Assembly: GCF_001468005.1 (NCBI RefSeq)
Contig: NZ_LNYY01000019.1
Coordinates: 839,688-903,687, forward strand
Length of the DNA: 64,000 bases
Source of the DNA: Legionella steelei
GTDB lineage: Bacteria; Pseudomonadota; Gammaproteobacteria; Legionellales; Legionellaceae
Reading direction: 5' to 3'
Positions 19,763-53,154 of the stretch are shown here, in pieces. Under the pieces are notes generated by a model. It was not told the origin of the DNA and did not search any database. It saw only the letters and a program-made list of their open reading frames with translations. The position numbers and the translations under genes were made by a program. Position 1 is the first letter of the stretch. Every line of letters starts with the position of its first letter.

Positions 19763-21574
19763 TTAATGCGTAAAAGAATTCGTACCCTGAATAAATTGTG
19801 CGATTTCATCCAATTGTTTTTTTGCAAAATACTCTTTTTGATCTTTTTGCGGATCAATTTGCGCCAGTTTTTTATAAAGTTCCTCTATATTTTGATGTCG
19901 GCCTTTACCCACAACTTTGGAATGGCTAAAAAAGTAAAATAATCCGGGAGCAATCTTAACTTGACCAATTTTGTGTAATTGTTCAATTTGTTGTAAAGGT
20001 GATAAATTAGAACATAAAATACTGGCAATCTTCCTCATCCCGGTGCTGTTTGTATTTGTAAATTTCTTAGCTAACTGTTTGTTGTCCATAAGGCCTTTAA
20101 CACAATCCTGAAAACTAGTCATTGCTTCTTTAAATTTCAAATTTTCCTTTTGCAACTTGCGAATTACTTTTTCCACGTTGGGATAAGGATTATCTTGATC
20201 CTCAAAATCTGCCCTTCGATTTTCCTTGATTAATCTTTTTGCCAAGGCGTAATGAGATTGGGGTAACGCGAATGTGGCAATTTTTTTATAAATTTTTGCT
20301 CGTTTATGGAGCATAGTCTGATTAAATGCATGGCTCAGTGGACTCTTTTCATCCAATAGGTTCGCTCTAAATGGAACTAAATCATGTTTTGATTGTAACA
20401 AATTCATTTGTTGATGATAGGCTTCAAACTCTTTAAAGAGGCGGACCATTTCCTTCCAATTATCATTAAAATTTTTATAGACATCCATTCTCGTAGGTAG
20501 GGTAATTAGAAATTTATTCAGTTCATCAATTGTTGGGCGCTCTTTTGGTTGTTGACTTTGTAGATGCTTGAGTAAAGTTTTTATATCGTCTAAAAGATAA
20601 GGGTCGATTTCAGATACATTATAACCTGTAAATAGGCCATCAAAACAATAAGACGCTGCGGCTAAGTCGGGTAAAGTTGCCGCTAATTCTTTATATTTTA
20701 AAACATTTGTGGCCCCGAAAATTTCACCCAATATTGCAGCCAAAGCATACATATCAGACTGATAAGTACTGCCTTTGCCAAGAATCACTTCCGGAGACAT
20801 ATAGGCAGGTGTTCCCGAAAAAATTAGATTATTTTTTGAATGAACATCTTCGGCCAAGCCAAAATCAATGAAAATGATAAGAAATTGACCATTTTCCAGC
20901 TTTTTATAACATATGTTTGCAGGCTTAAGATCGCGATGTACCACACCTTTTTGTTGTAATAACAGCATTTCACTGGCTATGTGCGCAGCGACTGCCAAGC
21001 GAAACTGAAACGAATATTTGTGACTGGGCTGAAAAGGCAACAGCTTATCCAGACTGATCCCACAATCCTCAAGGATTGTAATGACTCTATCTCCGGCCCC
21101 AACAACAGCAACAACGTTCACCCCATGCTTTTTTTGCCTAAGCGCTTCTTTTCCTGTTCTCTGCAATAGCACGGAATAGGGGGTTTCTTTAGATGGAATC
21201 TGTACCTTGACCACATCGTTTACAGGAATGAGTTCTGCTTGATAATGCTTCTTTTTGGCGTCATGCGTTACCACGATTTTATATTTTGATTCATTAACGG
21301 TAGCAAAACCACCTCGACCTTTGCGGGTGTTATCAACGATATGCCATTGATTTTTACCTGAAAGAACCAAGCTGTGACTAAAAGTAAATTTAGGTTCCTT
21401 CTTAAAAATACTTACTTTTGATTTTGACAGTTTTACTGGAAATGGGCTATCAAATAGTGTGGGTAGAAAATTTACACTCTCATTTTGCTTAAATAAATAT
21501 TTAGCAACTTTTTCATCCAGAAAAATTGGCTGCTTCGAACTACTCCATAATGCATCGAAATCAATGTGCTTCAT
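19763..21574 (-). CDS. eukaryotic-like Ser/Thr protein kinase, LegK-type effector candidate
   Basis: 603 residues. A kinase domain at about 80-365 has Gly-loop GRGGFATV (86-93), candidate ATP Lys K123 (VVKV), HRDLKPAN (213-220, catalytic D215), DFGLA (237-241, metal D237), TPAYMSPE (255-262) and SDMYALAAILGEIFG. All catalytic residues are intact. Residues 370-603 are helical and charged with no recognised domain. There is no signal peptide or membrane anchor, unlike PknB-type bacterial receptors, and no partner regulator nearby. Kinases of this layout in Legionella (LegK group) are injected into host cells. I cannot assign it to a particular LegK subtype. It converges with dgkA and diverges from the glycosyltransferase gene. 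Confidence 0.82.
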   Translation of the reverse strand: MKHIDFDALWSSSKQPIFLDEKVAKYLFKQNESVNFLPTLFDSPFPVKLSKSKVSIFKKEPKFTFSHSLVLSGKNQWHIVDNTRKGRGGFATVNESKYKIVVTHDAKKKHYQAELIPVNDVVKVQIPSKETPYSVLLQRTGKEALRQKKHGVNVVAVVGAGDRVITILEDCGISLDKLLPFQPSHKYSFQFRLAVAAHIASEMLLLQQKGVVHRDLKPANICYKKLENGQFLIIFIDFGLAEDVHSKNNLIFSGTPAYMSPEVILGKGSTYQSDMYALAAILGEIFGATNVLKYKELAATLPDLAAASYCFDGLFTGYNVSEIDPYLLDDIKTLLKHLQSQQPKERPTIDELNKFLITLPTRMDVYKNFNDNWKEMVRLFKEFEAYHQQMNLLQSKHDLVPFRANLLDEKSPLSHAFNQTMLHKRAKIYKKIATFALPQSHYALAKRLIKENRRADFEDQDNPYPNVEKVIRKLQKENLKFKEAMTSFQDCVKGLMDNKQLAKKFTNTNSTGMRKIASILCSNLSPLQQIEQLHKIGQVKIAPGLFYFFSHSKVVGKGRHQNIEELYKKLAQIDPQKDQKEYFAKKQLDEIAQFIQGTNSFTH

Positions 21575-31953: not shown

Positions 31954-34900
31954 ATGCAAAATATTGTTAATGTAGTACAGAACCGCGCCCAAAAGCATCC
32001 TCAAGCCAAAGCAGCACTTTATTTAGAAGACGGACAACATCCGACAGCAAGCCTCACTTTTGGTGAACTGGATCAGCAAGCCAAAATGATTGCCGCCAAT
32101 TTACAATCCCAGCACATGCTAGGCCAGCGTGCACTCCTTATTTATCCTACGGGAATTGAGTTTATAACCAGTTTGCTCGGATGCTGGTATGCCGGGGTAA
32201 TTGCTGTGCCAGTACCATGCCCTAAAATCGATGAGTTTGCAAAACACGAAGCATTTCTGAACACCATAGCCGATGATGCGGACATTGCTGCAGTCTTAAG
32301 CTTGGAGCAGTATCGCTCTAGTATTGAAGCGACGCTAACACACAAAGTACCTATATTGGCTACAGATACGCTAAAAACCCACGCTACTGGAGAGTATCAA
32401 CCCATTGAGATTATCGCGGATACTATTGCCTATTTACAATACACATCAGGATCCACCTCTACGCCCAAAGCAGCCATCATCACGCATGGTAATTTGCAAC
32501 ACAGTTTGCAAGAAACCATTAAAGTTTGGCATTACACCAAGAAAAGTGTCACCTTAACTTGGGCTCCTCATACCCATGTATACGGATTGGTATGCGGTAT
32601 CCTGGTACCTTTATATCATGGCACCCTGGCCATTATTATGTCGCCCGCAGCCTTCATTAATAGACCCATTACCTGGTTATCAGCAATTACAAAGTATCGT
32701 GTCACCCATAGTGGGTGCCCTAATTTTGGTTATGATGTTTGCGTACGTAACATTCCAGATGAGGCGCTTGCTGCGCTTAATTTAAAGCATTGGAAGGTAG
32801 CAATTAATGGTGGGGATATTGTTCAATATCAAACACTTACCCAATTTATTAGCAAATTTAAAATATGCGGCTTTGAGCTTAAGCAATTTTGTTCTGCATA
32901 CGGGATGTCCGAATTATCGGGAGCAATTGCAGTAACGTCTTATGGCCGTGAACCATACTCATTGCCTCTGCAAGATACACCGCGACAAATAGTCAGTAGT
33001 GGCAAATTATTAGCAGGGCTACACGCCCTTGTTGTAGATCCTGAAAGCAAACAGCCAGTTGCTCCCGGAGAAACTGGTGAAATCTGGTTATCAGGGGCAT
33101 CACTCGCCCAAGGTTATTGGCGACGCCCTGATGAAACCCAAGAGGTATTTCAGGCAACAGTACCTGGCAGTACGCTGCACTATTTTAAAACCGGAGATCT
33201 TGGATTTATCTCGGATAACGAAATTTATTTAACTGGCAGATTAAAAGAAGTCATTGTCATTTATGGCAAAAAATATTACCCGCTTGATCTAGAAATCACT
33301 GTCGCCAATACACTGTCTGCATTTCCAATCAAACTACCCCAAGTAGCCTTTTCAACTGAAATTGCAGGCAAAGAAAAAATTATCATTGTCCAGGAGTTAT
33401 CCGAAGAAACGCATCCATCACTCTATCCTGAGATCAAAAATGCAATTAGTCATGCGATCACCAAACATCATGGTGTGGATATTTACGACGTCGTTTTAAG
33501 CCCTAGGGGGGCAATTCCTAAAACTGGGAGTGGCAAATTACAACGAAAAAAAGCACAATTGCTATTTAACGAGCAAAAGCTCACCCGGTTAACCAATGAC
33601 TCGCCCATAACAACAGCACATGAGAATTCGCACACTGGCTCGACGAAGCAATTCGCCAATCTAGTCGCGCAAGTATTGAACATAGATGAGCAAGAAATTG
33701 ATCTACATGCCCCGTTAAGTCGTTATTCTTTTGACTCAATTAATATCATTCATCTCACCAGTGTACTGAATGAAACTTATGAGCTCGCCTTATCCCCTGC
33801 GACTTTGTATGAATACGCTACCTTAGCAGCGTTTTATAACGATTTATTAGCGACACAAAACGTTGCCGTGGTACATCATGAAAAAAGACAACATACACAT
33901 GAGTCCAATGACATTGCAATCATAGGGATGAGCGGTATTTTCCCGCAGGCTCCCGATGTGGATACCTTTTGGGATAATTTATCTCAGGGAAAAGATTGCA
34001 TCAGTGAAGTACCTTTATCGCGCTGGAACTGGCGTGATTTAACCGTGAGATGGGGTGGGTTTATTGATCATGTGGATCAATTTGATGCTGCGTTTTTTAA
34101 TATCTCGCCTCACGAAGCAGAACTTATTGATCCACAACAACGATTATTTCTGCAAACCGCGTGGAAAACCATTGAAGACGCGGGATACACCGCAGCAACT
34201 CTTGCCACAATGAAAACCGGTTTGTTTGTGGGAGTATTTAATCATGATTATGCCGAATTATTGCAAAAAAATGAGGTCATGGATGCCTACCTGACTACAG
34301 GCACAATGCACAGCATGATTGCCAATCGTATTTCGTACATTTTAAACTTGCGGGGGCCAAGTGAAGCAATAGATACCGCTTGCTCCAGCTCCCTGGTTGC
34401 CATTCACCAAGCTGTGCAGGCAATTTTACATAACGATTGTGAGTTGGCGCTTGCAGGTGGAGTGAATACGTTAATTACTCCTACTTCATTTATTGCCGCT
34501 CGACAAGCAGGCATGTTAAGTGAAGACGGACGCTGCAAGACTTTTGATACACATGCCAATGGTTATGTGCGTGGCGAAGGCGCAGGCGCTATTTTATTAA
34601 AAAAATTATCCCAGGCATTACAAGATGGTGACCACATCTATGGGGTAATCAAAGGCACTGCGGTGAATCATGGAGGACATGTTAATACGCTAACAGCTCC
34701 CAACCCCAATGCCCAAGCAGAAGTCATTATTGCAGCGTGCCAACGCGCTCAAATTCCCATCGACAGCATTCAATACATCGAAACCCACGGAACGGGGACA
34801 CCATTAGGGGATCCCATTGAAATCAACGGCTTAAAAAAAGCATTTCAACAGTTAGCCGTAGTGCAGAACATTGAATCCTTACCAACACACTATTGTGGCT

Positions 34901-37900
34901 TGGGGGCAGTGAAAACACATATTGGCCATTTGGAATCTGCAGCTGGAATCGCGGGCATTATAAAAACTTTATTAGCCATGCATCACGAAATGATACCGGC
35001 TAATTTACATTTAAATGAATTAAATCCTTATATTGAGATTGAGAACAGCCCATTTTATGTTGTTGATAAACCCAGGCAATGGCTCAAAGCTCCAGGTAAG
35101 CAGAGAAGAGCGGGGATAAGTTCTTTTGGTTTCGGTGGTGCAAACGCGCACATTATCCTCGAGGAACGCCCTGAACACCCACCCGTTCCCTCTCCTGCTC
35201 ACCCCGCTTATCTGATTAGCGTATCGGCAATGACACTATCTGCATTGCAACAACGTCTTGCAGATCTGCTTACGTGGTTGGATAAACAAAAGGATTTACC
35301 AAGCCTGGCAGCGCTCAGTTACACTTTAAATGCAGGAAGACAACATTTTAGTAAACGTTTTTGCGTGATTGTGGCAACAATTGCTGAGTTACAGGAACAA
35401 TTGCAGTCCATTTTATCCAGCAAAGATATTGAGTCTCATTTGCTAAACGACGAATTATCCCCTAATCGTTACCCGGCTAATTTAAATCAACTACGCACTA
35501 ATTATCTGCACGGAAAATCCATTGATTGGCGCACAGTGTATGGGGATTATCAGGAAAAAATATCGCTTCCGACCTATCCTTTCGCCAAAGAGTCCCATTG
35601 GCTGGAAATCAAAAACCATGAGCAGCAAAGTGCGCATACATTGATTGATGAGAATATTTCTACATTCTCTACGTCTGCTTTTAGTAAACGCTTTTCTGGA
35701 AATGAATTCTATTTACGGGATCATCAAATCAACAAGGAGCGCGTCTTACCCGGGGCGGTGTGTTTGGAAATGGCCCGCGTTGCTGCCAATATGGCATCAA
35801 GTCACCAACAAGTGACCACTCTAAGCCAGATCACCTGGAACAGACCAATAAAAAATCAAGATCTGTCCACCCCGCTACATATCCTTTTATTTCCTGAAAG
35901 CGATTGTGTCTCCTTTTCAATAACAGACCAAGAAGAGGCGGTTTCTTATGTGCATGGCATGCTGCATTATATGGATAATTCTGCCTATGCCCCACTCCCC
36001 CGATTAAACCTACACGAATTAAAAACAACATTGCCCTATACCCAAGAGCCCAATGTCATTTACAACCATTTTAATCATGTAGGCATAAGTTATGGGCCCA
36101 GTTTTCAACTCATTCAAAGCATACACTTCGATGAGCATAATCTTTTAGCAGAGGTTGCCCTGCCTGTAGATCTACCTACCTCTGCTCATGAGTTTGTATT
36201 ACATCCGTGTTTATTCGATGGCATTTTACAGACAACCCAGGTTTTACTGAAAAATCGTGAAGTGCTGTATCTACCTTTTTCTATCGAGCAAGTCGATATT
36301 TATAAAGCATTAACAAATACCTGTTATGTCCATGCGCAGCTGACTGCCAACGAAGACACCCTACATATGCCCGTATTTAATCTGCACGTTACTGATACGG
36401 AAGGAACGCTCTTATTAGTCATTACAGGATTTACCTTATGCGCAGTGCATGAGCCGGTACGCCCTGAAGCACATGTTGTTTATTACACTCCTCAATGGAT
36501 GATGCAAACAGCACGTACAACAAGCAGAACACATCCAGACTCCATTCTGATTCTAGGAAGCAATGAACGGTCAATACAGGCAATAAAAAAACAGTTCCCA
36601 GAGCGCACCGTTTCATCTCAACTTCTACACACATCCTCGCTTACCGATATACCTATCAACACACTCAGCGAGTGTATTATTATTGCGCTGGAAGAGTTAG
36701 ATGATGAGCGGCGGACAACAACAGAAATTCAAAAAAACCTCGAACAGACTTATTATCTGGTGCACACCATAGTAGCCCAAATCAGTAAATTAAGCCTCAA
36801 ACAGCCAATACAATTAATTATTACCAGTAAAAAACGCTCCATTTTTTCGCGCGCATTGGATGGTTTTGCAAAATGCGTGCACCAAGAGCAATCGAAAATT
36901 TCCTGTCGCTTTATAGAATTAGATGATTTAAGCCAACTGACACATGAATTAACGCAAAATGAAATTTATGTACGCTATGAAGGGAAGCAGCGCTATATCA
37001 AACACTATACGCCGCTACCGCCACTCGATGTAACAACTCCAATCCTCAAAAAATCCGGTGTTTATTTAATTACTGGCGGCATGGGTGGACTGGGATATTT
37101 GTTTGCAACCTATTTGGCAAAACATTATCAAGCCCAAATAGTATTAACAGGTCGTACAACACTGTCTGCGCTGCAGCAAAAAAAAATCGCCACACTGGAG
37201 CAACACGGCGCCTCAGTCGTTTATATCTCTGCCGATGTATCGTCCTTGCCCCAAGTGCAAACACTAATTCAAAAAACTAAAGAGCATTTTGGTGTACTCA
37301 ATGGCATTATTCATGCTGCAGGAGTGACTCACGACGGCTTGATTGTCAATAAAACAATCCCCGAAATAGAGGATGTTATAGCACCAAAAATTTATGGTGC
37401 CAGTAATTTACATACAGCAACGTGTCAAGAACCTTTAGATTTTTTCATTCTCTTTTCCTCGGTTGCCGCAGTGTTTGGCAACCTTGGGCAAAGTGACTAT
37501 GCCTACGCGAATTGTTTTCTGGATGAATTTGCCTACGAACGGGAGCAACAAAGAGCACGCGGGAATTGCCACGGACAGACACTATCAATGAACTGGCCGC
37601 TTTGGGAAGAAGGGGGATTGCATATCGCTCCTGAATATCAGCAAGAGCTAGAGCAAACCTTAGGCATCTTAAGTTTAGCTACTGAGCAAGGATTGAACGC
37701 ATTCTTGCAAGCATTACAGCATAAAGTTGCGCAGTGCATTGTTCTCCCAGGCTATCAGCAAAAGCTCAGGCATGCATTACAAAAAAATTCGCTGCGGCAA
37801 CAACCAGTGACCGCCCATGTATCCAATCCCAATGTAGGTGAATTCGCCGAAGACTTTTTGAAAAAGATACTCGCTGAGACATTGAAGTGCTCGCCAGAGC

Positions 37901-40900
37901 GAATTGAGCGGAACCTGCCTTTCGAAAATTATGGCATTGACTCGTTGATGATCATTCAACTCAATCAACGCTTGGCCAAAGAGTTCACCGCATTACCCAA
38001 AACCATATTTTTTGAATGCCACAACTTGGCGGATTTAACCGAATATTTCATAGCGCATTACAGCAATGAATTGAGTCTGCACCTACCGCATGCGGAATTG
38101 TCGTCCCTACATAAGCAAGACTCCATCCTGAGTCATACACCAGTGCTAACTCAAGAAGGGATTGCCGCCTACGCGGGAATGACAAAATTCCTTACCGCGC
38201 CCAGAAACATAATAGCAGCCCCCAGACGTCTTGGTTTCACCAAAAACACCTCGAAATCATCTGATATCGCCATTATTGGCCTCAGTGGACGCTATCCTGA
38301 AGCGAGGAATATAACAGAGTTTTGGCACAATCTGTGTGCAGGCAAAGACTGTATTACAGAAATCCCCAAGGAACGCTGGACCTTGATAGATTATTTTGAT
38401 ACCAATCAAGAGCGTCAAGGCACAATGTACAGTAAATGGGGCGGTTTTTTAAAAGACGTAGATCACTTTGATCCTCTGTTTTTTAATATTTCGCCGCGTG
38501 AAGCGACATTAATGGATCCACAAGAACGATTATTTTTAGAAACTGCTTGGCACACCATAGAAGATGCCGGATATGCCCGTGAAACATTAGCCGGCAGCAA
38601 AATTGGGGTTTATGTAGGCGTTATGTATGGCCAGTACCAGCTGTTTGCTCATGAAGCAGCACAACCCAATAAGTTTGTCCCCACGAACTCGGTGTTTGCA
38701 TCAATTGCCAATAGGGTTTCCTATTTTTTTGATTTTCGTGGTCCAAGTATCGCGCTGGATACCATGTGTTCCTCTTCACTCACAGCAATTCATTTAGCCT
38801 GTCAAAGCATCCATGAGGGCGAATGTGACATGGCGCTTGCGGGTGGCGTCAATCTGTCACTGCACCCCAATAAATACCTCTTGCTCAGCCACGGAAAGTT
38901 TTTAGCAAGTGATGGGCATTGCCGCAGTTTTGGTGATGGCGGCGATGGCTATGTACCTGGCGAAGCCGTCGGTGCCGTATTGCTCAAACCCTTAGATAAA
39001 GCGCTGGAAGATGGCGACCTCATTTATGCAGTAATTAAGGGCAGCCATCTCAATCATGGCGGCAAAACAAACGGTTACACTGTACCAAACCCGAATGCAC
39101 AAGCTGAATTACTTGCAGAAACCTACCAAAAAGCTCAGGTTGATCCTGCGCAAGTCAGTTACCTTGAAGCACACGGCACTGGAACGTCACTGGGTGATCC
39201 AATTGAAATGGCCAGCCTAAATAAAGTATTTGCGCAATCCATGCAACAGCACTGTGCTCTTGGCTCCGTAAAATCCAATATTGGCCATTGTGAGTCTGCC
39301 GCAGGAATTGCTGCCGTTACCAAAGTGGTATTGCAATTACAACATCAAACCTTAGTGCCTTCGCTTTTCTCTGAAACCTTAAATACCAACATAGACTGGT
39401 CGCGCACGCCATTTCGTGTGCAGCAAACCGTCAGTGAATGGAAACAACCCCTAGCTAATGTGCCACGAATTGCAGGAATCAGCTCTTTTGGCGCCGGAGG
39501 CTCTAATGCCCATTTGATTTTATCTGCGGCACCGGAAGTATTGTCCTCTTCGACACAGAACAAGTCACATTATTTGTTCACCGTATCTGCCAAAACCGAA
39601 CTCGCCTTAAATCAACGCTTGGACGATTTACTGATTTGGCTGGAAAATAATCCCTCGGCGCAGCTCGAACAGGTTAGTTACACCTTAAATGCGTGCAGAA
39701 GTCATTTTGAATGCCGTTGTGCCATGGTTGCAAGCTCGCTTGCTGAAGTGGGCGATTTAATACAACAATTTAAAGCGCAGCAACACCCTGCTCACTTGTT
39801 CATGCAGCACAATGCAGACAATAAACCTGAAAACAGCTTGCTCAATACGACGCTTTTACCAATAATGATGCAACAATTGTCCCAACCCACTCACTATAAA
39901 GAAGCTTTGCTGACATTAGCAAAATTTTATGTAGAAGGTCAGACTTTGGATTGGCAGCAAATACATGCCGATGAATCCAGGAAAAAAATATCCTTACCGA
40001 CTTATCCTTTTGCCAAAGAACGTTATTGGTACTCTGATATAGCACAACATAAAAGCCTGGAAGCGCAACAAGGCAATGGGGTATTAACGTCAAACGGACT
40101 TACTGACAAGGTACATTCTTTTCTGGTTCGACAAGTCATTCACATTTTACAAATGACACAACACCGAATTGCGCTAGAAAAAAATCTTGGCGAATATGGG
40201 ATGGATTCGGTCCATTTTATTGAATTAGCCAAAAAGATTACGGAGCAATATGCAATAGAATTTACCCCGGCCCTTTTCTTTACCCACAGTAGCGTCTTAT
40301 CAATCAGTCAATATCTTATCAATCAGTTTCCTGAGGCAGTAGCGCAAGCACACCATGAAATAGCCCAACTGCACGACCATACTCGTCCAGTGCAATCCAG
40401 ACCTGTTGCAACCGATACAGTAGATACAATTGCGATTATCGGGATGCAGGGGCTTTTCCCCCAAGCCGATGATCTTGCCACATTCTGGCAACATATGCTT
40501 GATGGGCATGATTTAGTAACTGAAATCCCTATAGAACGTTGGAATTGGCGTGATCATTTTGGCAATGAAACACATCAAAGTAATTCCAAATGGGGTGCTT
40601 TTATTAATGCCTTCGATCAATTCGACGCAGGCTTCTTTAATATTTCAGCCCGCGAAGCGAATCTTATGGATCCGCAACAACGGCTCTTTTTGGAAATTGC
40701 ATGGAAAGTCATTGAAGATGCCGGCTACGATCCTTTTTCGCTACCCTCACGCAACATTGGGGTTTTTGCAGGAGTTGAGTTTAGCGAATATCAGACCTTA
40801 ATTGCCAAACAACAAAAAGAACATCACGGATTTATTGCGACAGGGAACTCGCATAGCATGATTGCCAATCGCGTTTCCTACTTTTTCAATTTCCAAGGCC

Positions 40901-43900
40901 CGAGTGAAGCCATAGATACCGCTTGCTCAAGCTCCTTGGTGGCGATCCATCGTGCAGTACAGGCTATTCGCCATGGTGAATGTGAGTTGGCAATCGCAGG
41001 TGGCGTAAGCCTTCTATTAAGCCCTGATACGCTGATCGTCACGAGCCAATTGGGTGCCTTATCCGCTGATGGTCGTTGCAAAACGTTTGACAAGACGGCA
41101 AATGGCTACGTTAAAGGAGAAGGCGTGGCTGGCCTTTTATTAAAAGCATTAAAACAAGCGCAAGCAGATGGTGATCATATTTATGGAGTCATTAAAGCCT
41201 CCGCAGTAAATCATGGCGGCAAGGCACAATCGCTAACCGCACCGAATGCAGTCGCACAAAGCGAGCTATTAATTCGAGCTTACACACAAGCTGATTTTAA
41301 TCCTGAAACAGTGACCTACATTGAAACGCATGGTACAGGAACCGCTTTAGGCGATCCCGTTGAAATCGAAGGATTGAAACGTGCATTTTCAACGCTACTT
41401 ACATCAGAAATCACACAAAACTCCATTGCTTTAGGTTCGGTCAAAACCAATATCGGTCATTTAGAACCTGCATCAGGAATTGCGGGAGTCATCAAGTTGA
41501 TTATGGCCATGAGCCATGAAACCATACCCGGTATTTTGCATTTCAATGAATTAAACCCGTACATCAATTTAACCAACACACCTTTTTACATTGCCAAAGA
41601 AACACAACCCTGGCAACGCAATAAAAACGAACGCGGAGAGGATATTCCATTGCGTGCGGGCGTGAGCTCTTTTGGATTTGGTGGCACTAATGCGCATATT
41701 GTTCTAGAGGAAGGTCTCCCCCATCAGACGACCGTGACGAACCAACACACGAAACCCTATTATTTAATTGTACTGTCGGCTAAACACCAAGAAAGTTTGC
41801 AACAAAAAATAGCAGATTTGCAGCAATGGCTTAACTCAAATAAAGAAACAGTCTCCTTAGCTGCACTCAGCTTTACGCTTAATGCCGGTCGTGCGCATTT
41901 TATTTACCGTTGCGCTCTAGTAGTAGACTCTATTGACGCCTTATTGCATGCATTAACCTTGTTAAGTCAACATGAAGTCCCTGAGTATTGCATGTTAAAC
42001 GAAGGCCAAACCTTGACTATCCAAGGCCCCGTATTTGATGAAGTATACCAGGCAGCGATTAACGCATTACAGCAGCCAGAACACCCAGAGCAATATCGCC
42101 ACAAGTTATTTATCCTGGCTGATCTCTATACAAAACATTACTTAATTGATTGGCATGACGTATATGCTGGAGAAAACCTACAACGCATCGCGTCGTTACC
42201 GGCATATCCCTTTAGCAAGCAACGTTATTGGTATGATCTGGAAGCAAACGCCATACCACCCAAAGTTATCATACCAGCGACTAATCCGAGTATCCCAGTA
42301 ACAATGGACCGCTCCAGCCAAGTATTAAGCTATTTACAGCAAGTCTTTGCGGAAAAACTACGGACGACCCCCGAACGTATTCAACTGGATGAAACCTATG
42401 AAGTCTATGGCGTTGACTCATTGATTGGTTTGGAAATTACCAATCGCCTGGAGAAAGATTTCGGCACCCTACCTAAAACCCTACTCTATGAGCGCAATCG
42501 ATTAAATGATTTAGCCAAATATTTTATCAAACATCATCAAGAGAAATTGTCTGTGCTGATGCCTACCATCGATGCTAAGCCGTCAGTTGCACCACTTGAG
42601 ATAGAAGCGGTTAAACCCATAACCACCGCCTATGAACAGATGAGCCATACATCGCGCGACATTGCCATAATTGGCTTAAACGGCACCTTCCCAATGGCCA
42701 ATTCCATGGATGAATTTTGGCATAACTTAAGCTCGGGGCTTGACTGTGTGGGCGAAGTACCGGTCGAGCGCTGGAATTATAAAGACTATCCTGTAGTGCT
42801 CGGCGGCGAGGAACACTATTTCCCCCATGGAGGCTTTATTCCTGATGTCGATAAATTTGATCCGCTGTTTTTTAACATCTCCCCACGCGATGCAGGACTT
42901 ATGGATCCACAGGAGCGTTTATTCATGCAATCCGTATGGTCTACGCTGGAAGATGCGGGTTACACACGAGATAAATTAAAACACAAAGCACAAAACTCAG
43001 TTGGCGTATTTGCTGGTGTCACGTATAACTTTTATCCATTATTTATTGCGGAAGAGTGGCAAAAAGGCAATCGTGTGCCACTGGATATCCAATCGTTCTC
43101 AGTAGCAAACCGCATTTCTTACTTTCTTGATGTACATGGTCCAAGCTTTGTTGTCGATACAGCCTGCTCATCCTCTTTGGCAGCAATCCATTTAGCCTGT
43201 GAGAGCCTGTTACGAGGTGATTGCAAAATGGCAATTGCTGGCGGGGTTAATTTGTCCTTACATCCTAGTAAATATCACTTCCTGGGCAGTTTTAATTTTA
43301 TGTCCGAACAAGGGCGTTGCGCCAGTTTTGCTGAAGGGGGAACTGGTTATGTGCCTGCTGAAGGCGTTGGTTCTGTATTATTGAAGCCTTTGGCTGAGGC
43401 AATAGCCGATAATGATATGATTTATGGGGTAATTAAAGGAAGCAGTATGAATCATGGGGGTAAAACCAGTGGCTATACGGTCCCCAATCCCAATGCGCAA
43501 GCCGCGGTGATTCTCCAAGCCTTAAAGAATGCGAATATGGATGCGCGAACAGTATCGTATATTGAAGCGCATGGCACAGGAACATCTCTAGGCGACCCCA
43601 TAGAAATTCGTGGTTTGCAAGATGCCTTTGAACACTATACGGAAGACAAACAATTTTGTGCAATTGGTTCTGTCAAATCCAATATTGGACATCTGGAGTC
43701 TGCAGCAGGAGTATCGCAATTGGCCAAGGTGCTCTTACAGATGCGCCACCAAAAATTAGTCCCGACATTACATAGCGCCCAATTGAACCCCTTTATTGAT
43801 TTCAAAAACTCACCTTTTTATGTACAACAAGAACTCACTGATTGGCAGCCTGGGTATAATGTACCTCGTCGTGCTGGCGTCAGCTCTTTTGGTGCGGGTG

Positions 43901-46341: not shown

Positions 46342-49300
46342 CACAACTACTTTAAAAAAATCATTGTTAATGATTCAAAAGCTAAAAAAGCTTTTGCAGG
46401 AACAAAATAAGCACTTATTTGAACCGATGGCGATTATCGGGATGAGCTGTCGTTTACCCACAGCAAATACTCCGCAAGAGTTTTGGGAATTACTCTGCCA
46501 AGGTAAAAATGTCATTTCCTCAATACCTAATACACGTTGGGAACTCCTTAAAGGTACTCGCGAACCAGAGCAACGTGACGCCAATTTATCGTATTGGGGA
46601 GGCTATTTGCAGCATATTGAGGCATTTGATGCGTATTTTTTTGGCATTAGTCCCCGCGAAGCAATGCGCATGGATCCACAACAACGCATCTTATTGGAAG
46701 TTGCTTATGAGTCGCTTGAAGATGCCGGCTTAACGATTGAGGCTTTAGCTGGATCCAATATGGGGGTTTTTTCCAGCCTCTATGCAAGTCAGTTTAGCCA
46801 TCTGCAAAAACTGGATTCGGATATGGATGCTTTGTTTATTCCTACCGGAAGTGCCATCAGTATGGCAGCAAATCGCTTATCGTATTTATTCGATTTACGT
46901 GGACCCAGTCTGGTGTTAGATACTGCGTGCTCCTCATCGCTGATTGCCATTCAATTAGCTTGTCTTAACTTGCAGGCAAAATTATGTGATACCGCACTGG
47001 TTAGCGCTGTAAATATCAATTTATTACCGTCTATTCATTCTGTTTTGGCCAAAGCAACGATGCTTTCGCCTACTGGACAGTGCCACACTTTTGATGCCAA
47101 TGCCGATGGCTATGTGCAAGGAGAAGGAGCTGGATCCATTGTGTTGAAGCCACTTTCGCAAGCATTAAAGGATCAAGACAAAATCTATGCCGTGATTATG
47201 GGGGGGGCAATAAACCAAGATGGCAAAACAAATGGCTTAACTGCACCGAATGGCTTACAACAAGAACACTTATTACGCTCGGCATATAAGGCAGCGCAAA
47301 CCGATCCGGCAGATGTTGCCTATATCGAATGTCATGGAACAGGTACCTTTCTCGGAGATCCCATTGAAATTCAAGCCTTGGGCGAAATTGTCGGCAAAAA
47401 TCGCGCGCCTGAAAAACCCTGCTGGATAAGTTCAGTCAAAACCAATGTAGGGCATCTGGAACCCGCAGCAGGTATTGTGAGCATCATTAAAGTGGCGTTA
47501 GCTTTAAAACATGGTTTCATTCCACCCCACCTTAACTTCTCGCAGGCCAACCCACATATTCCATTTGAGCGTTACGCCTTGCGTATTCCACAACAAACGG
47601 AGCAATTACCTCGATATGGTGATAGCTGTATTGCGGGAGTCAGTGGCTTTGGTTTTGGTGGTGCCAATGCACATCTTGTGTTGCGGGAACTCTCTTTACA
47701 TGAGCAACCCGATTCGGCACCTGTTGCCCGGGATAACGAGTTATTCACTATTTCGGCAAAAGAGCCTGCTGCATTATCGGCTTTGATTGAGCGTTGGTGT
47801 GCTTTTTTAAACAATAAACCAGAAACAAACCTGGCACAGCTCTGCTATAACCTCCATGTCAGACGTTCGCATTATGTGCATCGTTTAGCAATAATTACTG
47901 ATTCAGTTGCAGATCTGTATCAAAAACTAGAGGCTTTGCGTGTAGACCCTCACAGGCAACAGGAACATGTATTTATCAATCATGACCTAAAAAAATCCAA
48001 CAACCCCTTGAGCATATCCGAATTTGTGAACATGGATTTGTCTCTCTTAGCAAAAAACTATATAAACCAAGCTCAGGTCGATTGGAAAAAATTTGAAGAA
48101 GAACGCATTTACATGCCTTTGGATATGCCGTTTTATCCATGGCAACACAAAGTCTATTGGCCAAGCTTTGGGCACACATCCAATGCGCGTGTTAATCCAA
48201 GCTACCCAATGCGCGGAAAGACCCTAGCCTCACCTTTAGCAGCGCGCCAATTTGAGTTTGTCTTTGATACACAAACAATGCCTGAAATCCAGGATACATT
48301 TTATGTATTGCATGCAGGTTATTATCTGGAAATGTTGGCGTATGCCACACAGCAACTACAATCTACAGTTTCCTTTAATGTGCAACAACTTAATTTTTTA
48401 TCGCCTATATTAGTTCTGGATGGAAAAACCGTTTTGGTCCACTTAATCATCGAAAAAGAAGAGCACAATGGCTTAATATTTCGTTTTTTCAGCAATGATG
48501 GCAAAGACAATTGGATAGAACATGCCACAGGCGCTTTAGCGTTGAATACCTCACCTCTCAGTCAACTTGCAAGCAAGAACGAGTTGCTCAAACGACTTCC
48601 GGCATCCGGAACTCAGGAATCATTCTACAAACGCATCACCGGTATGGGTATGCCCGCAGGCGATACCATTCGCTGGGCACATCAATATTGGACAAATGAC
48701 AATGAATTATTTTGTGAATTACGCGAACCTAAGGCTTCAGAGCGTGGGACACAATTTATAACGCAAATGCATCCAGGGATCTTTGATGCCTGTATTCAAA
48801 CACTCTTCTTACTGCTTCCAGAACAATTTACTAAACCCTATATTGCATCGCATATGGGTACTATTGAATTTTATGGCGCAGCAGAAGAGCAAAAGTATAT
48901 ATACACCGTATTAAAAAAACTGCATCCCGAAGGAAAGCATATAATTGCCGATTGGTATTTATTGGATAAAAATTATCGTTTGCTCGCTCAATGCCATGGT
49001 CTACAGATGACCATACTCAACGATACCCTGCAAATCGATAAAATAATGGAAATTCAATCTCAGTTTCAACTTGATTTATCTTTGCCTTATACAACATGTA
49101 AACAGCAATTGATCCATTATTTGACTGAGCAATTTGCGATGATTTTTGCGATGCCCCAAAATGATATTAGCCCCTTCCAGTCCTTGCATGAACTGGGGAT
49201 GGATTCTCTCATGGCATTAGCAGTAATCCGCATCATAGAAACCAATTTGAACGTGACATATTCTTTACCTTTGATGATGCAAGGCCCGTCAATTAATGAG

Positions 49301-50206
49301 ATTGCAGAGTATGTGTTATCAAGCCAATGGATAGGAGCAAAAGAGGAACCCACACCAGCAACCCATTTCGATAATATATGGATCGCCAATCGAAAAATAC
49401 AAGAGCATGCTCAAATACGCTTATTTTGCTTTCCGTATGGTGGTGGAGGCGCCTCTATTTATCGCGAATGGCAGCAGGAATTTCCTGATTTTATTGAAGT
49501 ATGCCCAGTACAATTGCCAGGTAGAGAAAATCGGATGGAAGAACAGCCTCTTGATAACTTGGATACTTTAGTGTCTTTGTTGGCCTATCAACTAAAACCT
49601 CAATTTGATTTACCTTTTGCGTTTTTTGGTCATAGTTTTGGTTCACTAATTGGCTTTGAACTGACTCGCTATTTACGTACACATCACCTACCAACGCCTG
49701 CGCATCTTTTTGCATCAGCATATCCTGATCCTCGTGTACCCTCCAAAAGTTTGCATAATCTGCTGGCTAAACTACAACAAATGAACATCAATTTATTTGA
49801 TTTAAACTCAGAGCACATTGGTGAGTTAGATGAGGCACAATTAACTGCTTTATCCAGTGTATTTCAAGAAAACGGCATTGTTGATTACAGCGATGAACGC
49901 ATGAACAAAAGTATTATCAAAGTTTTATTACCTATTTTTATTGGCGATATGAATATAGTAAAAAGTTATACTTACCGCGATGAATTACCTTTAAACCTAA
50001 GCACTACGGTATTTTTAGGAAAACAGGATGCGTGGGTCTCTCCAGAAGATCATTTTGGATGGGCTGAACACTCCTTAGAACCGTGTGAATTCCAACAATT
50101 TGATAGCGGGCATCTGTTTATAAGAGAAAAAGAAATAAGATCGAAAGTAATTCAAAAAATTACCGAAAAGTTACAGCGCTTTTGTAAAGAAGAATGTGAT
50201 GCCTAA
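46334..50206 (+). CDS. polyketide synthase terminal module: KS, degenerate DH-like, ACP, thioesterase
   Basis: 1290 residues from ATG 46334, inside the end of the preceding gene; TTG 46328 is an alternative. A short charged coiled-coil docking segment (2-30) precedes KS5 (31-455, C199 in DTACSSSL, ECHGTGT, TNVGHLEP). A post-KS linker ends near WQHKVYW. A double-hotdog DH-like domain covers about 625-895. The usual DHxVxGxxxLPG loop is shortened to D654-TFYVLH660-AG, so the standard catalytic His is gone, while the second-half Asp (D818 in HPGIFDACIQ) remains. ACP6 carries S958 (GMDSL). A type II-like thioesterase follows from ~1030: FPYGGGGASIYREW, GHSFG (S1101) and H1260. It should perform the last extension, help ring closure and release the product. 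There is again no AT. The gene ends at a hairpin shared with the convergent FadL gene. Confidence 0.87.
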   Translation: MNDTTTLKKSLLMIQKLKKLLQEQNKHLFEPMAIIGMSCRLPTANTPQEFWELLCQGKNVISSIPNTRWELLKGTREPEQRDANLSYWGGYLQHIEAFDAYFFGISPREAMRMDPQQRILLEVAYESLEDAGLTIEALAGSNMGVFSSLYASQFSHLQKLDSDMDALFIPTGSAISMAANRLSYLFDLRGPSLVLDTACSSSLIAIQLACLNLQAKLCDTALVSAVNINLLPSIHSVLAKATMLSPTGQCHTFDANADGYVQGEGAGSIVLKPLSQALKDQDKIYAVIMGGAINQDGKTNGLTAPNGLQQEHLLRSAYKAAQTDPADVAYIECHGTGTFLGDPIEIQALGEIVGKNRAPEKPCWISSVKTNVGHLEPAAGIVSIIKVALALKHGFIPPHLNFSQANPHIPFERYALRIPQQTEQLPRYGDSCIAGVSGFGFGGANAHLVLRELSLHEQPDSAPVARDNELFTISAKEPAALSALIERWCAFLNNKPETNLAQLCYNLHVRRSHYVHRLAIITDSVADLYQKLEALRVDPHRQQEHVFINHDLKKSNNPLSISEFVNMDLSLLAKNYINQAQVDWKKFEEERIYMPLDMPFYPWQHKVYWPSFGHTSNARVNPSYPMRGKTLASPLAARQFEFVFDTQTMPEIQDTFYVLHAGYYLEMLAYATQQLQSTVSFNVQQLNFLSPILVLDGKTVLVHLIIEKEEHNGLIFRFFSNDGKDNWIEHATGALALNTSPLSQLASKNELLKRLPASGTQESFYKRITGMGMPAGDTIRWAHQYWTNDNELFCELREPKASERGTQFITQMHPGIFDACIQTLFLLLPEQFTKPYIASHMGTIEFYGAAEEQKYIYTVLKKLHPEGKHIIADWYLLDKNYRLLAQCHGLQMTILNDTLQIDKIMEIQSQFQLDLSLPYTTCKQQLIHYLTEQFAMIFAMPQNDISPFQSLHELGMDSLMALAVIRIIETNLNVTYSLPLMMQGPSINEIAEYVLSSQWIGAKEEPTPATHFDNIWIANRKIQEHAQIRLFCFPYGGGGASIYREWQQEFPDFIEVCPVQLPGRENRMEEQPLDNLDTLVSLLAYQLKPQFDLPFAFFGHSFGSLIGFELTRYLRTHHLPTPAHLFASAYPDPRVPSKSLHNLLAKLQQMNINLFDLNSEHIGELDEAQLTALSSVFQENGIVDYSDERMNKSIIKVLLPIFIGDMNIVKSYTYRDELPLNLSTTVFLGKQDAWVSPEDHFGWAEHSLEPCEFQQFDSGHLFIREKEIRSKVIQKITEKLQRFCKEECDA

Positions 50207-50207
50207 T

Positions 50208-50244
50208 GTAGCCTGGGTGAAGGCAAAGCCATAACCCGGGTTAC
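50208..50244. terminator. palindromic repeat copy 4, between convergent polyketide and FadL genes
   Basis: GTAGCCTGGGT (50208-50218) pairs with ACCCGGGTTAC (50234-50244), a short form of the GTAGCCTGGGTG element. It starts two bases after the polyketide gene stop and ends two bases before the FadL stop codon, so it is well placed as a bidirectional terminator. Confidence 0.65.
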
Positions 50245-50245
50245 A

Positions 50246-51523
50246 CTATGCAAAACTCCAGGTAATTTGTCCACCGATTGCTGTCGTTTGTGTGTTGGTA
50301 TGTCCTGAAAGGGATGTCACAGGAGTAACGAGATTCACCGGCATTTGGTTGAAGAAAGAATGACCAATCCCCACATCATAACCTAAATTCTCTGTGGGTT
50401 GAAAATGTGCTCCCACAGCCAGAATCGTTGCACTTCCAACAGGATCTGCGATGCCACGATCCTGATCGTTAGAAGGAGTACTCATAAATTGAATACCACC
50501 TCGTAATAACATTTTTGGGGTTGCCTTAAACGTAGCACCAACTGCGTAATCAAAACAGTTGTGGTAATTGAAAGGAATCGTTACTGGAATGGTTACTCCC
50601 ATAGGCGTTTCGGTATGATCCATTGTTATTTGATTAAACGTTCGCCAATTGGTGTAAAACACCGTGGCCATTCCCGTCCATCGCTGTGTGAAATCATGTT
50701 GTAAGCTCAATTGAGCGCGAGCAGGTAAAGCAGCTTTAGTTTGTTGTTGATTGGTTCTGAAGACGCCTTCCCATGGTACATGCACCGTACTATGCCCATT
50801 GGTCGTAATCGAGATTTTAGAGTTATAACTCAGCCCTATCCGCGTTTCTGGTGAAAAATCAAATAATAACCCACCATGCCAACCGTATCCCCAACCGCTC
50901 AAATGATTTTCGAGTCTTGAATCCAAAGGAAAAGAAATGGGTGGGCCATACATATTATTCAGGGTAAATGCCAAATGTAGTGCATCAAATCCTGCACCTA
51001 CAGAAAAACGGTCTGTTATTTTCACGCCTACGCTTGGACCAACATCAATCCCCACAACTTGTGAACGCGTGGATGCATAGCGAGCAATCGATGAAGATGA
51101 AGAACCATAATTCGTACCCAGCCCAAATGGGGTTGTAAAATTAAAACCAACAGTAATGCGCTTGTTAATTGGCTTAGAATAATAAAACGATGGCATGAAC
51201 GCCTTAATTTGACTACGTGCTACCCCTGATTGTACGACCGGAAAAGGAAATGGAAATGACGGTGTTACTGCAGTGCCTGTAAAACGTGCCGTACCGAAAA
51301 TACCTAGTGCATTACCCACAATTTGTTGATGGGCTAGCTTCACCAAACCCGCGGGATTCGTATAACTCGTACTTGCATCACTAGCAGCAGTTGCCCAATC
51401 GGCATATGCCACCCCCAAGCTTGCGGTGTTTACAAAAGGCAAACTAAAATCGGAGCTTGCCCAATTGGGTGAAGAAAGACTGAGTACAGAAATCGCAAGG
51501 TATAGATGAGACAATTGGCGCAC
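50246..51523 (-). CDS. FadL/OmpP1-family outer-membrane transporter
   Basis: 425 residues from GTG 51523, preceded by AAGGGAG that overlaps the stop of the ammonia-lyase gene; the gap is 11 bases, so the two form an operon. A signal peptide (1-22, ending PNWASS) is followed by the FadL N-terminal plug: ASLGVAYADWATAASDASTSYTNPAGLV, where NPAGL is the family hallmark. β-strands follow and the protein ends in an aromatic residue pattern (QITWSFA). FadL channels pass hydrophobic molecules such as fatty acids or aromatic hydrocarbons across the outer membrane by lateral opening. Being co-transcribed with the cinnamate-forming enzyme and beside the polyketide synthase, it may move a hydrophobic precursor or product, though ordinary fatty-acid uptake is equally possible. 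Confidence 0.87.
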   Translation of the reverse strand: MRQLSHLYLAISVLSLSSPNWASSDFSLPFVNTASLGVAYADWATAASDASTSYTNPAGLVKLAHQQIVGNALGIFGTARFTGTAVTPSFPFPFPVVQSGVARSQIKAFMPSFYYSKPINKRITVGFNFTTPFGLGTNYGSSSSSIARYASTRSQVVGIDVGPSVGVKITDRFSVGAGFDALHLAFTLNNMYGPPISFPLDSRLENHLSGWGYGWHGGLLFDFSPETRIGLSYNSKISITTNGHSTVHVPWEGVFRTNQQQTKAALPARAQLSLQHDFTQRWTGMATVFYTNWRTFNQITMDHTETPMGVTIPVTIPFNYHNCFDYAVGATFKATPKMLLRGGIQFMSTPSNDQDRGIADPVGSATILAVGAHFQPTENLGYDVGIGHSFFNQMPVNLVTPVTSLSGHTNTQTTAIGGQITWSFA

Positions 51524-51534
51524 GTTTCACTCCC

Positions 51535-53154
51535 TTAAATTTTGTCATCCTTTAATAAAGCAATAATCAGTTCAATTTCTTCCGACATAGGTCTGCAATG
51601 TTCTATTTTTGGAGAATATTGACGAACAGTGTGATAAATAGATTGAGCCTTTTTACTTGCCTTTTCAATACCACGTAATTCAAGCGCTTGGGTTGCTGCG
51701 AGCAGTAAAATAGCGGTAAGGCGCTGCAAATTAGCAACTGACTCTTGTAAATCAAAAGCTGCGTGCGTGCCCAAACTGTTCACGTCTTGATTATCACCCT
51801 CAGTCGGTAACGTAAAAGCCTGATGTGTCTGCGCTAATTTGCGATTTTGTACTGCAAGGGCTGCCGACAGAAGCTGCATGGAACGAAATCCATTGTGCTT
51901 TTCTGGATTAGGTACTAAATTCACCGGTAAATTCTGATTCTTACGCGGGTGCACTAAATTGGCGAGCAATGCATGTATCCAAGTCGACGCTTGAGCGATA
52001 TCCATTTTTAACATATCACAAGCATCAGTCACATAATAACCCATAAAATTCGCACTGTGATGAATATTATTCGCAGCGGCATCAATAACAGGATTATCGT
52101 TAACGGAATTCATTTCATTTTCTATCCAATGAATAGCGCGTGCCAAATTTTCTTGGAACGGACCAAATCCTTGTGGCACAGAGCGAATAGAATAATAATC
52201 TTGCACGGGTTTATAGGCATAATCCTTTGTCCGTAACTCATCTAAATCAGTCAACAATTGGCTTCCTTCCCAGAAATCAATGAAAAATTGATTGATTTCC
52301 ATTTCACCCTGTTGTTTTTTCAGTTGATGAACCATTGGATGATAAGCACTATTAATCACCAGTAGGGATTCTAATGTCATCGCAATCGCTGCCAACATAC
52401 GTTTAAATAAATGATGCAAATCATAAATGGCCAGGCTGGCAATCGCGGTCATAAATGACGTGCCATTAATCAAAGCAAGCCCATCGCGCATCACTGGTTT
52501 ATACGCTTTAAGACCCGCTAATTGAATTGCTTCAGGAGCCAGCATCACTTGATCCTGATAGGTGACTGCGACCCGCTCACCAATAAGTGCTGCTGCAATC
52601 ATAGACAGAGGAATCAGATCGCCGCTCGCACCAATAGAACCATAACAACGGACAACCGGGGTAATTCCCGCATTGAGAAAGTCTAATAGGGCATTGATTA
52701 ATTCGGGATGCACACCTGAATACCCTTGCGCCAAGCAATGAGCACGCAACATCATTGTCACACGTACAATATGCGGTGAAACAATGTTGCCTAAGCCGCA
52801 AGAAAGAGAACGAATAATGTTTTCTTGTCGCTCATTAATCGAATCATAGTAATCCTGTGTGTCAGTATCTTTGAGTGCTGTATCGATATAACGCACCTGA
52901 TCACCAAAGTTTGTATTCACGCCATAAATAGGGACTCTTGAATCAACATGAATTTTCAAAAATTGATAGGACGCTTCAATTGCCTCCATCGCCTGTGGTG
53001 GTAAAGCCACTGGTGATAAGTAATGCGCCAGTGTTTGAGACGAGGCAATCGTCAATTGACAACCATAGCCGATCGTTACAATAGGTATACCTTTTCTATT
53101 CACATCTACAGCATGAGACGTTTGGGAGGTATTGAAAGACTTTAGATGTTCCAA
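51535..53154 (-). CDS. aromatic amino acid ammonia-lyase, probably phenylalanine ammonia-lyase
   Basis: 539 residues from TTG 53154, with TGGAG 7 bases upstream. It is a member of the HAL/PAL/TAL family, which deaminates His, Phe or Tyr using an MIO cofactor formed from Ala-Ser-Gly: here A176-S177-G178 in GSIGASGDL. The Tyr-loop YGVNTNFG has Y77. The substrate-selectivity pair (Ser-His in histidine lyases, His-Leu in tyrosine lyases, Phe-Leu in many phenylalanine lyases) appears to be S116-L117, which argues against histidine. No hut genes are nearby. Placed convergent to the polyketide synthase with an AMP-ligase loading domain, it most likely makes trans-cinnamate as starter. A phenylalanine aminomutase is an alternative. 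Confidence 0.82.
   Translation of the reverse strand: MEHLKSFNTSQTSHAVDVNRKGIPIVTIGYGCQLTIASSQTLAHYLSPVALPPQAMEAIEASYQFLKIHVDSRVPIYGVNTNFGDQVRYIDTALKDTDTQDYYDSINERQENIIRSLSCGLGNIVSPHIVRVTMMLRAHCLAQGYSGVHPELINALLDFLNAGITPVVRCYGSIGASGDLIPLSMIAAALIGERVAVTYQDQVMLAPEAIQLAGLKAYKPVMRDGLALINGTSFMTAIASLAIYDLHHLFKRMLAAIAMTLESLLVINSAYHPMVHQLKKQQGEMEINQFFIDFWEGSQLLTDLDELRTKDYAYKPVQDYYSIRSVPQGFGPFQENLARAIHWIENEMNSVNDNPVIDAAANNIHHSANFMGYYVTDACDMLKMDIAQASTWIHALLANLVHPRKNQNLPVNLVPNPEKHNGFRSMQLLSAALAVQNRKLAQTHQAFTLPTEGDNQDVNSLGTHAAFDLQESVANLQRLTAILLLAATQALELRGIEKASKKAQSIYHTVRQYSPKIEHCRPMSEEIELIIALLKDDKI

What the first reader, a model, noticed from the sequence alone, without database searches (positions are those of the whole stretch)
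31954..53154. Cinnamate-primed trans-AT polyketide locus whose domain order matches legioliulin
Seen: AMP ligase-ACP loading module; module 1 KS-DH-KR-ACP; modules 2 and 3 KS-ACP; module 4 KS-KR-ACP; module 5 KS-DH*-ACP-TE; and a convergent aromatic ammonia-lyase. Reading it colinearly, cinnamoyl plus five malonyl units gives a phenyl-diene from module 1, and the module 4 KR removes exactly one ring oxygen. Aldol closure of the C2 methylene on the module 2 carbonyl followed by lactonisation then gives 8-hydroxy-3-(4-phenylbuta-1,3-dienyl)isocoumarin, C19H14O3. This agrees with the structure of legioliulin, the fluorophore of blue-white fluorescent Legionella, as I remember it; its biosynthesis from cinnamate has been reported. 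The compound is therefore known, but the step-by-step colinearity is worth recording.
Basis: partly seen in the sequence, partly recalled or inferred. Interest (0 to 1): 0.8.

Follow-up and report, generated by a model that had tools for sequence, protein, structure and literature searches.

The report
Legioliulin fluorophore gene cluster in Legionella
This stretch holds the already described genes with which blue-white glowing Legionella species are thought to build their fluorescent compound legioliulin, and distant relatives carry a shorter version that should make a related but different compound.

Summary
Every named domain is there, with core catalytic residues intact except in the last dehydratase-like domain, and the lyase is convergent. 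The same five-module synthase lies in 17 complete Legionella clusters, window included. One is L. parisiensis, reported to make legioliulin (PMC5126622). I could not open Ahrendt 2013 or the 2004 structure paper, so identity with the published genes is by species and architecture, not by sequence.

Comparison adds three things. (1) Two MAGs labelled Gammaproteobacteria hold complete four-module relatives lacking DH-KR-ACP-KS2; their module-4 KR has lost its catalytic Tyr or is deleted, which predicts 6,8-dihydroxy-3-styrylisocoumarin. (2) A stand-alone acyltransferase gene follows the lyase in 8 of 25 cluster pieces but is missing from the window and 13 close relatives; a distant chromosomal acyltransferase is the best candidate substitute. 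(3) The last module's KS resembles cis-AT enzymes, and its DH-like domain lacks the catalytic His motif in 22 of 22 clusters yet stays conserved, so a cyclisation role is possible. Product, lyase specificity and AT choice remain untested.

The parts
31954..46341 (+). ORF1, 4795-residue polyketide synthase: loading module and modules 1-4
   Evidence: Pfam domains; start; orthologues in 16 other complete Legionella clusters
31978..33585 (+). AMP-binding (fatty-acyl-AMP-ligase-like) loading domain
   Evidence: PF00501 and PF23024; NCBIfam FAAL models match below their cut-offs; motifs conserved
33643..33855 (+). loading ACP
   Evidence: PP-binding; FDSI serine read; limits approximate
33901..36459 (+). 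module 1 KS (about 33901-35166) and DH (35635-36459)
   Evidence: DH His and Asp kept in 19 of 19 Legionella clusters
37057..38040 (+). module 1 KR core and ACP
   Evidence: PF08659, PF00550; Ser/Tyr motif
38260..40317 (+). module 2 KS-ACP (its KS is absent from the four-module relatives, with the DH-KR-ACP before it)
40423..42537 (+). module 3 KS-ACP
42655..46194 (+). module 4 KS (about 42655-43932), KR (core 45172-45663), ACP (45997-46194)
   Evidence: catalytic Tyr kept in 19 of 19 Legionella clusters
46334..50206 (+). ORF2, module 5: KS-DH*-ACP-TE
   Evidence: Pfam
46421..47692 (+). module 5 KS, cis-AT-like
   Evidence: best single-KS PDB match CurL; KS1-4 match trans-AT KSs best
48212..49027 (+). 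module 5 DH-like domain without the HxxxGxxxxP motif
49118..50170 (+). module 5 ACP and thioesterase (GHSFGS nucleophile motif)
50246..51523 (-). FadL/Toluene_X outer-membrane transport protein, 11 bases downstream of the lyase
   Evidence: PF03349 E 7.5e-62; next to or near the lyase in the Legionella relatives, at the far end of the cluster in G143 and G144
51535..53154 (-). aromatic amino acid ammonia-lyase (presumed PAL), MIO motif ASG, Ser-Leu at the selectivity pair
   Evidence: PF00221; motifs; orthologues

Best explanation
This is the legioliulin biosynthetic cluster of a blue-white-type Legionella. Inferred steps: the lyase turns phenylalanine into cinnamate; the AMP ligase adenylates cinnamate and loads it on the first ACP. 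A separately encoded acyltransferase puts malonyl on the extension ACPs. Module 1 extends, reduces and dehydrates to a phenyl-diene. Modules 2 and 3 extend without reduction. Module 4 extends and its KR turns one ketone into an alcohol. Module 5 extends once more. C2-C7 aldol closure with loss of the module-4 alcohol as water gives the salicylate ring, helped by the DH-like domain (weakest step). Release and enol lactonisation at the thioesterase give 8-hydroxy-3-(4-phenylbuta-1,3-dienyl)isocoumarin. Shown here: domain order, core active sites, and conservation over 17 complete clusters. Not shown: substrate, product, AT partner, cyclisation step.
For: Domains and motifs. Same order in 17 complete Legionella clusters. 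Lyase orthologue at 73% or more in 18 of 45 genus genomes, plus one fragment at 78%. Named loci include L. anisa, bozemanae, gormanii, parisiensis, rowbothamii, steigerwaltii and tucsonensis, 7 of the 10 species given as blue-white in the introduction of PMC10975825. L. parisiensis makes legioliulin per PMC5126622 (passages). PMC5126622 implies cinnamic acid as the usual starter (section 20). Formula C19H14O3 follows from the module count. No AT domain in the synthase; stand-alone ATs occur in the genome.
Against: The published gene sequences and the structure paper are not in the library, so neither was compared. The lyase matches no NCBIfam model above its cut-off; its best is a histidine ammonia-lyase subfamily. 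Its selectivity pair is Ser-Leu, not the Phe-Leu of the PAL chains 2nyf and 2nyn (that these are the selectivity positions is recalled). The module 1 DH has the His, Pro and Asp, but the Gly of HxxxGxxxxP is replaced in 19 of 19. The DH-like domain of module 5 lacks the catalytic His motif, so its role is guessed. PMC10975825 also gives L. wadsworthii as autofluorescent, and no wadsworthii locus appeared among the 27, a pattern-limited scan.
Confidence: 0.88

Rival explanations
1. Same assembly line, different starter: the lyase or ligase prefers another aromatic acid (for example p-coumarate), giving a legioliulin analogue with shifted fluorescence.
For: No specificity model passes its cut-off. 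The selectivity pair varies in the wider family (Ser-Leu, Ala-His, Ser-His, Ser-Phe). PMC5126622 itself suggests another starter for L. cherrii (section 20).
Against: Ser-Leu is the same in all 12 Legionella loci compared, including the producer L. parisiensis; the lyase is 88% identical to that one.
Confidence: 0.08
2. Non-colinear use (a module skipped or iterated, or an early pyrone released), so the main product is not legioliulin.
For: Known in trans-AT systems (general knowledge). The last module is of mixed stock: a cis-AT-like KS and a DH-like domain without the His motif.
Against: KS, ACP, KR and TE motifs are intact and conserved. Strict colinear reading already gives the recalled formula.
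Confidence: 0.04
3. For the AT step only: malonyl is supplied by the housekeeping FabD (or by the third stand-alone AT, L033) rather than by the distant stand-alone AT L031.
For: FabD is present in the window genome beside fabH- and fabG-like genes, and L033 is intact.
Against: L031 is closer to the cluster ATs (51-55%) than L033 (40-46%) or FabD (29-35%), and its type is present in 14 of 14 genomes whose cluster lacks its own AT. But it also occurs in genomes without the cluster, so it is not dedicated, and the 14 share ancestry.
Confidence: 0.3

Closest known systems
Legioliulin (lgl) trans-AT PKS cluster of L. dumoffii / L. parisiensis (Ahrendt et al. 2013, itself not seen; cited in PMC5126622 and PMC13229132)
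   Same: Trans-AT type I PKS, cinnamate starter, blue-white species, orthologous cluster in L. parisiensis
Four-module relatives in MAGs MAG_CA28 (G143/L015) and Centralia_MAG_117 (G144/L017)
   Same: Convergent lyase, AMP ligase-ACP loading, KS1, KS3, KS4 and KS5 orthologues, KS-DH*-ACP-TE end
   Different: No DH-KR-ACP1-KS2; KR4 without catalytic Tyr or deleted; own AT gene after the lyase
Curacin CurJ dehydratase (PDB 3kg8)
   Different: CurJ keeps the catalytic His; in the alignment that loop is about 4 residues shorter here and holds Thr/Ser
Fungal product-template domain of PksA (PDB 3hrq, 3hrr, 5kbz)
   Different: 14% identity; weaker match than true dehydratases; NCBIfam PT model only E 0.0019, below cut-off

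Membership tests
Legioliulin biosynthetic cluster | Trans-AT PKS with AMP-ligase loading module and aromatic lyase next to it | tested here: met
Legioliulin biosynthetic cluster | Orthologue of the cluster of a known producer species | tested here: met
   L. parisiensis contig (333339 bases): the same 11 ORF1 domain queries in the same order and the same ORF2, lyase 88%
Legioliulin biosynthetic cluster | Sequence identity with the deposited lgl genes | not testable with these tools
   Ahrendt 2013 is not in the library; only citing papers were seen
Legioliulin biosynthetic cluster | Product is legioliulin | not testable with these tools
   needs chemistry; formula prediction only
Trans-AT polyketide synthase | No AT domain within the modules | tested here: met
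   no PF00698 in either ORF; stand-alone ATs in the genome
Trans-AT polyketide synthase | KS domains of trans-AT type | tested here: inconclusive
   KS1-4 best match trans-AT KSs; KS5 best single-KS match is CurL, cis-AT by recall; no reference KS tree was built
Phenylalanine ammonia-lyase | MIO cofactor motif ASG | tested here: met
   28 of 28 rows
Phenylalanine ammonia-lyase | Phe-Leu pair seen in the PAL chains aligned | tested here: not met
   Ser-Leu; so 'PAL' is inferred from context, not from the pocket
Active PKS dehydratase (module 5 DH) | HxxxGxxxxP with catalytic His | tested here: not met
   absent in 22 of 22 clusters (20, 2)

The most novel reading that the evidence does not exclude
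Legioliulin is one member of a natural series set by module number. Non-Legionella lineages, some bearing Dot/Icm-type genes, carry a four-module version (KS2 module absent, KR4 dead by Tyr-to-Asp or deleted) that makes 6,8-dihydroxy-3-styrylisocoumarin, or its p-hydroxy form where the lyase has His in its pocket. Within Legionella, the blue-white main clade lost the AT gene from the cluster and now depends on a distant AT, while a His-less DH-like domain guides ring closure.
Probability: 0.45. Interest if true: 0.55.

Novelty: already known. Interest (0 to 1): 0.35.

Why it matters
The window itself is a described kind of cluster. The comparison gives colinearity a natural test: relatives with a module missing and a ketoreductase broken predict a defined, different product (C17H12O4). 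It also raises the question of which acyltransferase feeds the synthase in the glowing Legionella species, where the cluster's own gene is missing.

Tried and rejected
Gain of the KS2 module in Legionella was considered. KS2 also occurs in the MAG CRAIB_MAG95 (G145, contig C260). In the KS3 and KS5 parts of the tree G145 lies outside the Legionella plus G143/G144 group, which favours loss in G143/G144. The KS1 part instead puts G145 with Legionella at modest support (92/73), so the direction is not settled.

Relocation of the cluster AT to the distant place of L031 was the first idea (note). The AT tree rejected simple relocation: the L031 type is a separate clade, and G026 has both. Substitution remains possible. 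In G026 the L031-type AT lies about 10.5 kb from the end of ORF2 on one draft contig with unrelated genes between; I did not count this as linkage.

A first fold of the DH-like domain with 8 rows was poor (pLDDT 44) and was not used. The second, with 20 rows, was good.

Paper searches: the gene names lglA-lglE gave 110 papers, of which 20 were listed and looked unrelated by title. 'styrylisocoumarin' gave 0 papers. 'isocoumarin' + 'trans-AT' + 'polyketide synthase' + 'cinnam' gave only PMC5126622. A further search gave 5 papers, none on this pathway by title. That the four-module clusters are not in print rests only.

Rows dropped: the KS tree left out 6 of the 23 genomes with cluster pieces (G041, G004, G001, G019, G025, G005) to keep it small, and KS stretches of 330 residues or fewer. 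The AT tree lost L101, L103 and L104, whose ORFs lacked the motif used to find them. In one search the rows G145c and G026 under KR4 and G145c and G143 under DHKR1 are non-orthologous or partial best hits and were not counted; G026's own KR4 was read later. L029, a lyase fragment, was left out (26 of 27 loci used).
Full report
WHAT IS THERE. ORF1 (31954-46341) and ORF2 (46334-50206) encode a type I polyketide synthase. Pfam gives AMP-binding, 5 ACP, 4 KS, 1 DH and 2 KR in ORF1, and KS, DH-like, ACP and TE in ORF2, with no acyltransferase domain. KS, ACP, KR and TE motifs are intact. On the other strand a lyase of the HAL/PAL/TAL family (51535-53154) is followed 11 bases later by a FadL/Toluene_X outer-membrane protein (50246-51523). 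The cluster sits between a GGDEF-EAL gene and housekeeping genes: phosphomannomutase, dUTPase and a coaBC-like gene. The synthase region 32-48 kb has a slightly higher GC (0.425-0.455) than most of its flanks (0.37-0.42).

IDENTITY. A lyase orthologue of 73% identity or more lies in 18 of 45 genomes of the genus, window included, and a fragment at 78% lies in one more. A loading-ligase orthologue (52-100%) lies in 19 of 143 genomes of the family, all in the window's genus. The ORF2 C-terminal half is found in 20 of 143 genomes at the cut-off used, 19 of them convincing and one (G038) only 28% identical. Seventeen clusters, window included, are complete and show the same module order. The test used domain queries without an ACP4 query; a weak ACP hit after KR4 was seen in 16 of 17.

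Named loci include L. anisa, bozemanae, gormanii, parisiensis, rowbothamii, saoudiensis, steigerwaltii and tucsonensis, with synthase domains beside the lyase. The introduction of PMC10975825 lists ten blue-white fluorescent species (passages), and seven of them are in this list. L. lytica is probably G013: its first contig of 3,198,081 bases and the cluster position fit the 3.2 Mb chromosome and BGC1 of PMC11828895 (passages), which reports 50% similarity to the legioliulin cluster. L. cherrii and L. dumoffii are not in the list; the tool warns that records near the window's own genome may be left out. PMC10975825 elsewhere gives L. wadsworthii as autofluorescent too, and no wadsworthii locus was returned; this is unexplained and stands against a simple cluster-to-glow rule. 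Legioliulin production by L. parisiensis was followed by fluorescence in PMC5126622 (passages). The cluster in L. parisiensis is the orthologue (contig of 333339 bases). The window's species is not identified.

HOW IT WORKS. Inference from module logic: cinnamoyl plus five malonyl units, reduction and dehydration in module 1, ketoreduction in module 4, aldol closure, loss of the alcohol and lactonisation give C19H14O3, 290.0943. The structure of legioliulin is recalled, not read. In 19 of 19 Legionella clusters the module 1 DH keeps His and Asp, and KR4 keeps the catalytic Tyr (17, 2). Against a perfect reading, the Gly of the DH1 motif is replaced in all 19. The lyase has the MIO motif but carries Ser-Leu at the selectivity pair, unlike Phe-Leu of the PAL chains 2nyf and 2nyn and Ser-His of the HAL chain 7tqr and of the window genome's own HAL-like protein (the meaning of the pair is recalled). 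No NCBIfam lyase model passes its cut-off. The cinnamate starter therefore rests on context and on PMC5126622.

MODULE SERIES. The closest clusters outside the Legionella loci are in MAGs labelled Gammaproteobacteria. G143 (MAG_CA28) and G144 (Centralia_MAG_117) are complete: FAAL-ACP / KS-ACP / KS-ACP / KS-(KR)-ACP / KS-DH*-ACP-TE. In a 74-row KS tree each module position forms its own well-supported clade. The three ORF1 KSs of G143 and G144 are orthologues of KS1, KS3 and KS4, and the ORF2 KS is orthologous to KS5. KS2 with its preceding DH-KR-ACP is absent, and Pfam reports no DH in their ORF1 at E 1e-5. Their module 4 KR is unlikely to work: G143 has Asp in place of the catalytic Tyr, and G144 has lost the catalytic half. 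Colinear reading gives 6,8-dihydroxy-3-styrylisocoumarin, C17H12O4. The lyase of G144 has Ala-His at the selectivity pair, and those of G146 and G147 have Ser-His, so their starter may differ. G146 is a partial cluster with the same beginning. G145 (CRAIB_MAG95) is split over contigs but holds KS1, KS2, KS3 and KS5 orthologues; that these contigs form one synthase is not shown. DotI/IcmL-type genes occur in G143, G144, G146 and G147 (4 of 5 examined), not in G145, and in 0 of 14 control genomes. These are single draft MAGs, so assembly or sequence error cannot be excluded for any one of them.

THE MISSING ACYLTRANSFERASE. In 8 of the 25 cluster pieces compared (G013, G020, G023, G026, G029, G143, G144, G146) the gene after the lyase is a stand-alone AT of about 282 residues with the GHSLGEY motif. 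The window and 13 close relatives lack it in the cluster, and so does the G145 piece that holds the lyase. The window genome has four AT-family genes: one within a large synthase (C5), FabD beside fabH- and fabG-like genes (L032), and two further stand-alone ATs (L031, L033). The first search marked L031 with stops, but ORF listing shows an intact 276-residue gene. L031 is 51-55% identical to the cluster ATs, L033 40-46% and FabD 29-35%. L031-type ATs (87-100%) occur in 14 of 14 genomes with an AT-less Legionella cluster. They also occur in genomes without the cluster and form a separate clade from the cluster ATs. The best reading is loss of the cluster's AT and service by a general stand-alone AT. 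This is inference and is confounded by shared ancestry of the 14.

VERDICT. The module-number series, the missing AT gene and the mixed origin of module 5 are the additions. I found no mention of the four-module clusters in the open library, which is a narrow search.

Noticed in passing
window 15975-19229 (-): A second AMP ligase fused to a reductase-like domain (PF07993), 1084 residues; similar ligase genes lie about 13 kb from the synthase in 12 other cluster genomes by the coordinates (not in G007).
   Followed up: partly
window 1142, 8277, 26087, 27188, 27237, 50207, 53298: Dispersed copies of a repeat core CCCAGGCTACA or its reverse complement, on both sides of the lyase-FadL pair among other places.
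   Followed up: no
loci L038, L039, L040 (between FadL and the thioesterase): A 1302-residue AMP ligase-KS gene lies inside the cluster region of G033, G025 and G005; other relatives have different genes here, by eye including channel- and transporter-like ones, and in G025 a transposase-like ORF interrupts FadL.
   Followed up: partly
loci L020-L028: Lyase relatives (47-55%) in candidate-phylum, myxobacterial and unplaced MAGs without synthase domains found nearby; 7 of 9 have Ser-His and 2 have Ser-Phe at the selectivity pair.
   Followed up: no
window 14840-15871 (-) and 19763-21574 (-): A PP2C-type phosphatase and a protein-kinase-domain protein lie on either side of the ligase-reductase gene.
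   Followed up: no
loci L050, L051, L052: A gene of about 340 residues after the thioesterase in the clusters of G023, G013 and G020 reads by eye as an alcohol dehydrogenase/quinone-reductase type (not run against Pfam).
   Followed up: no
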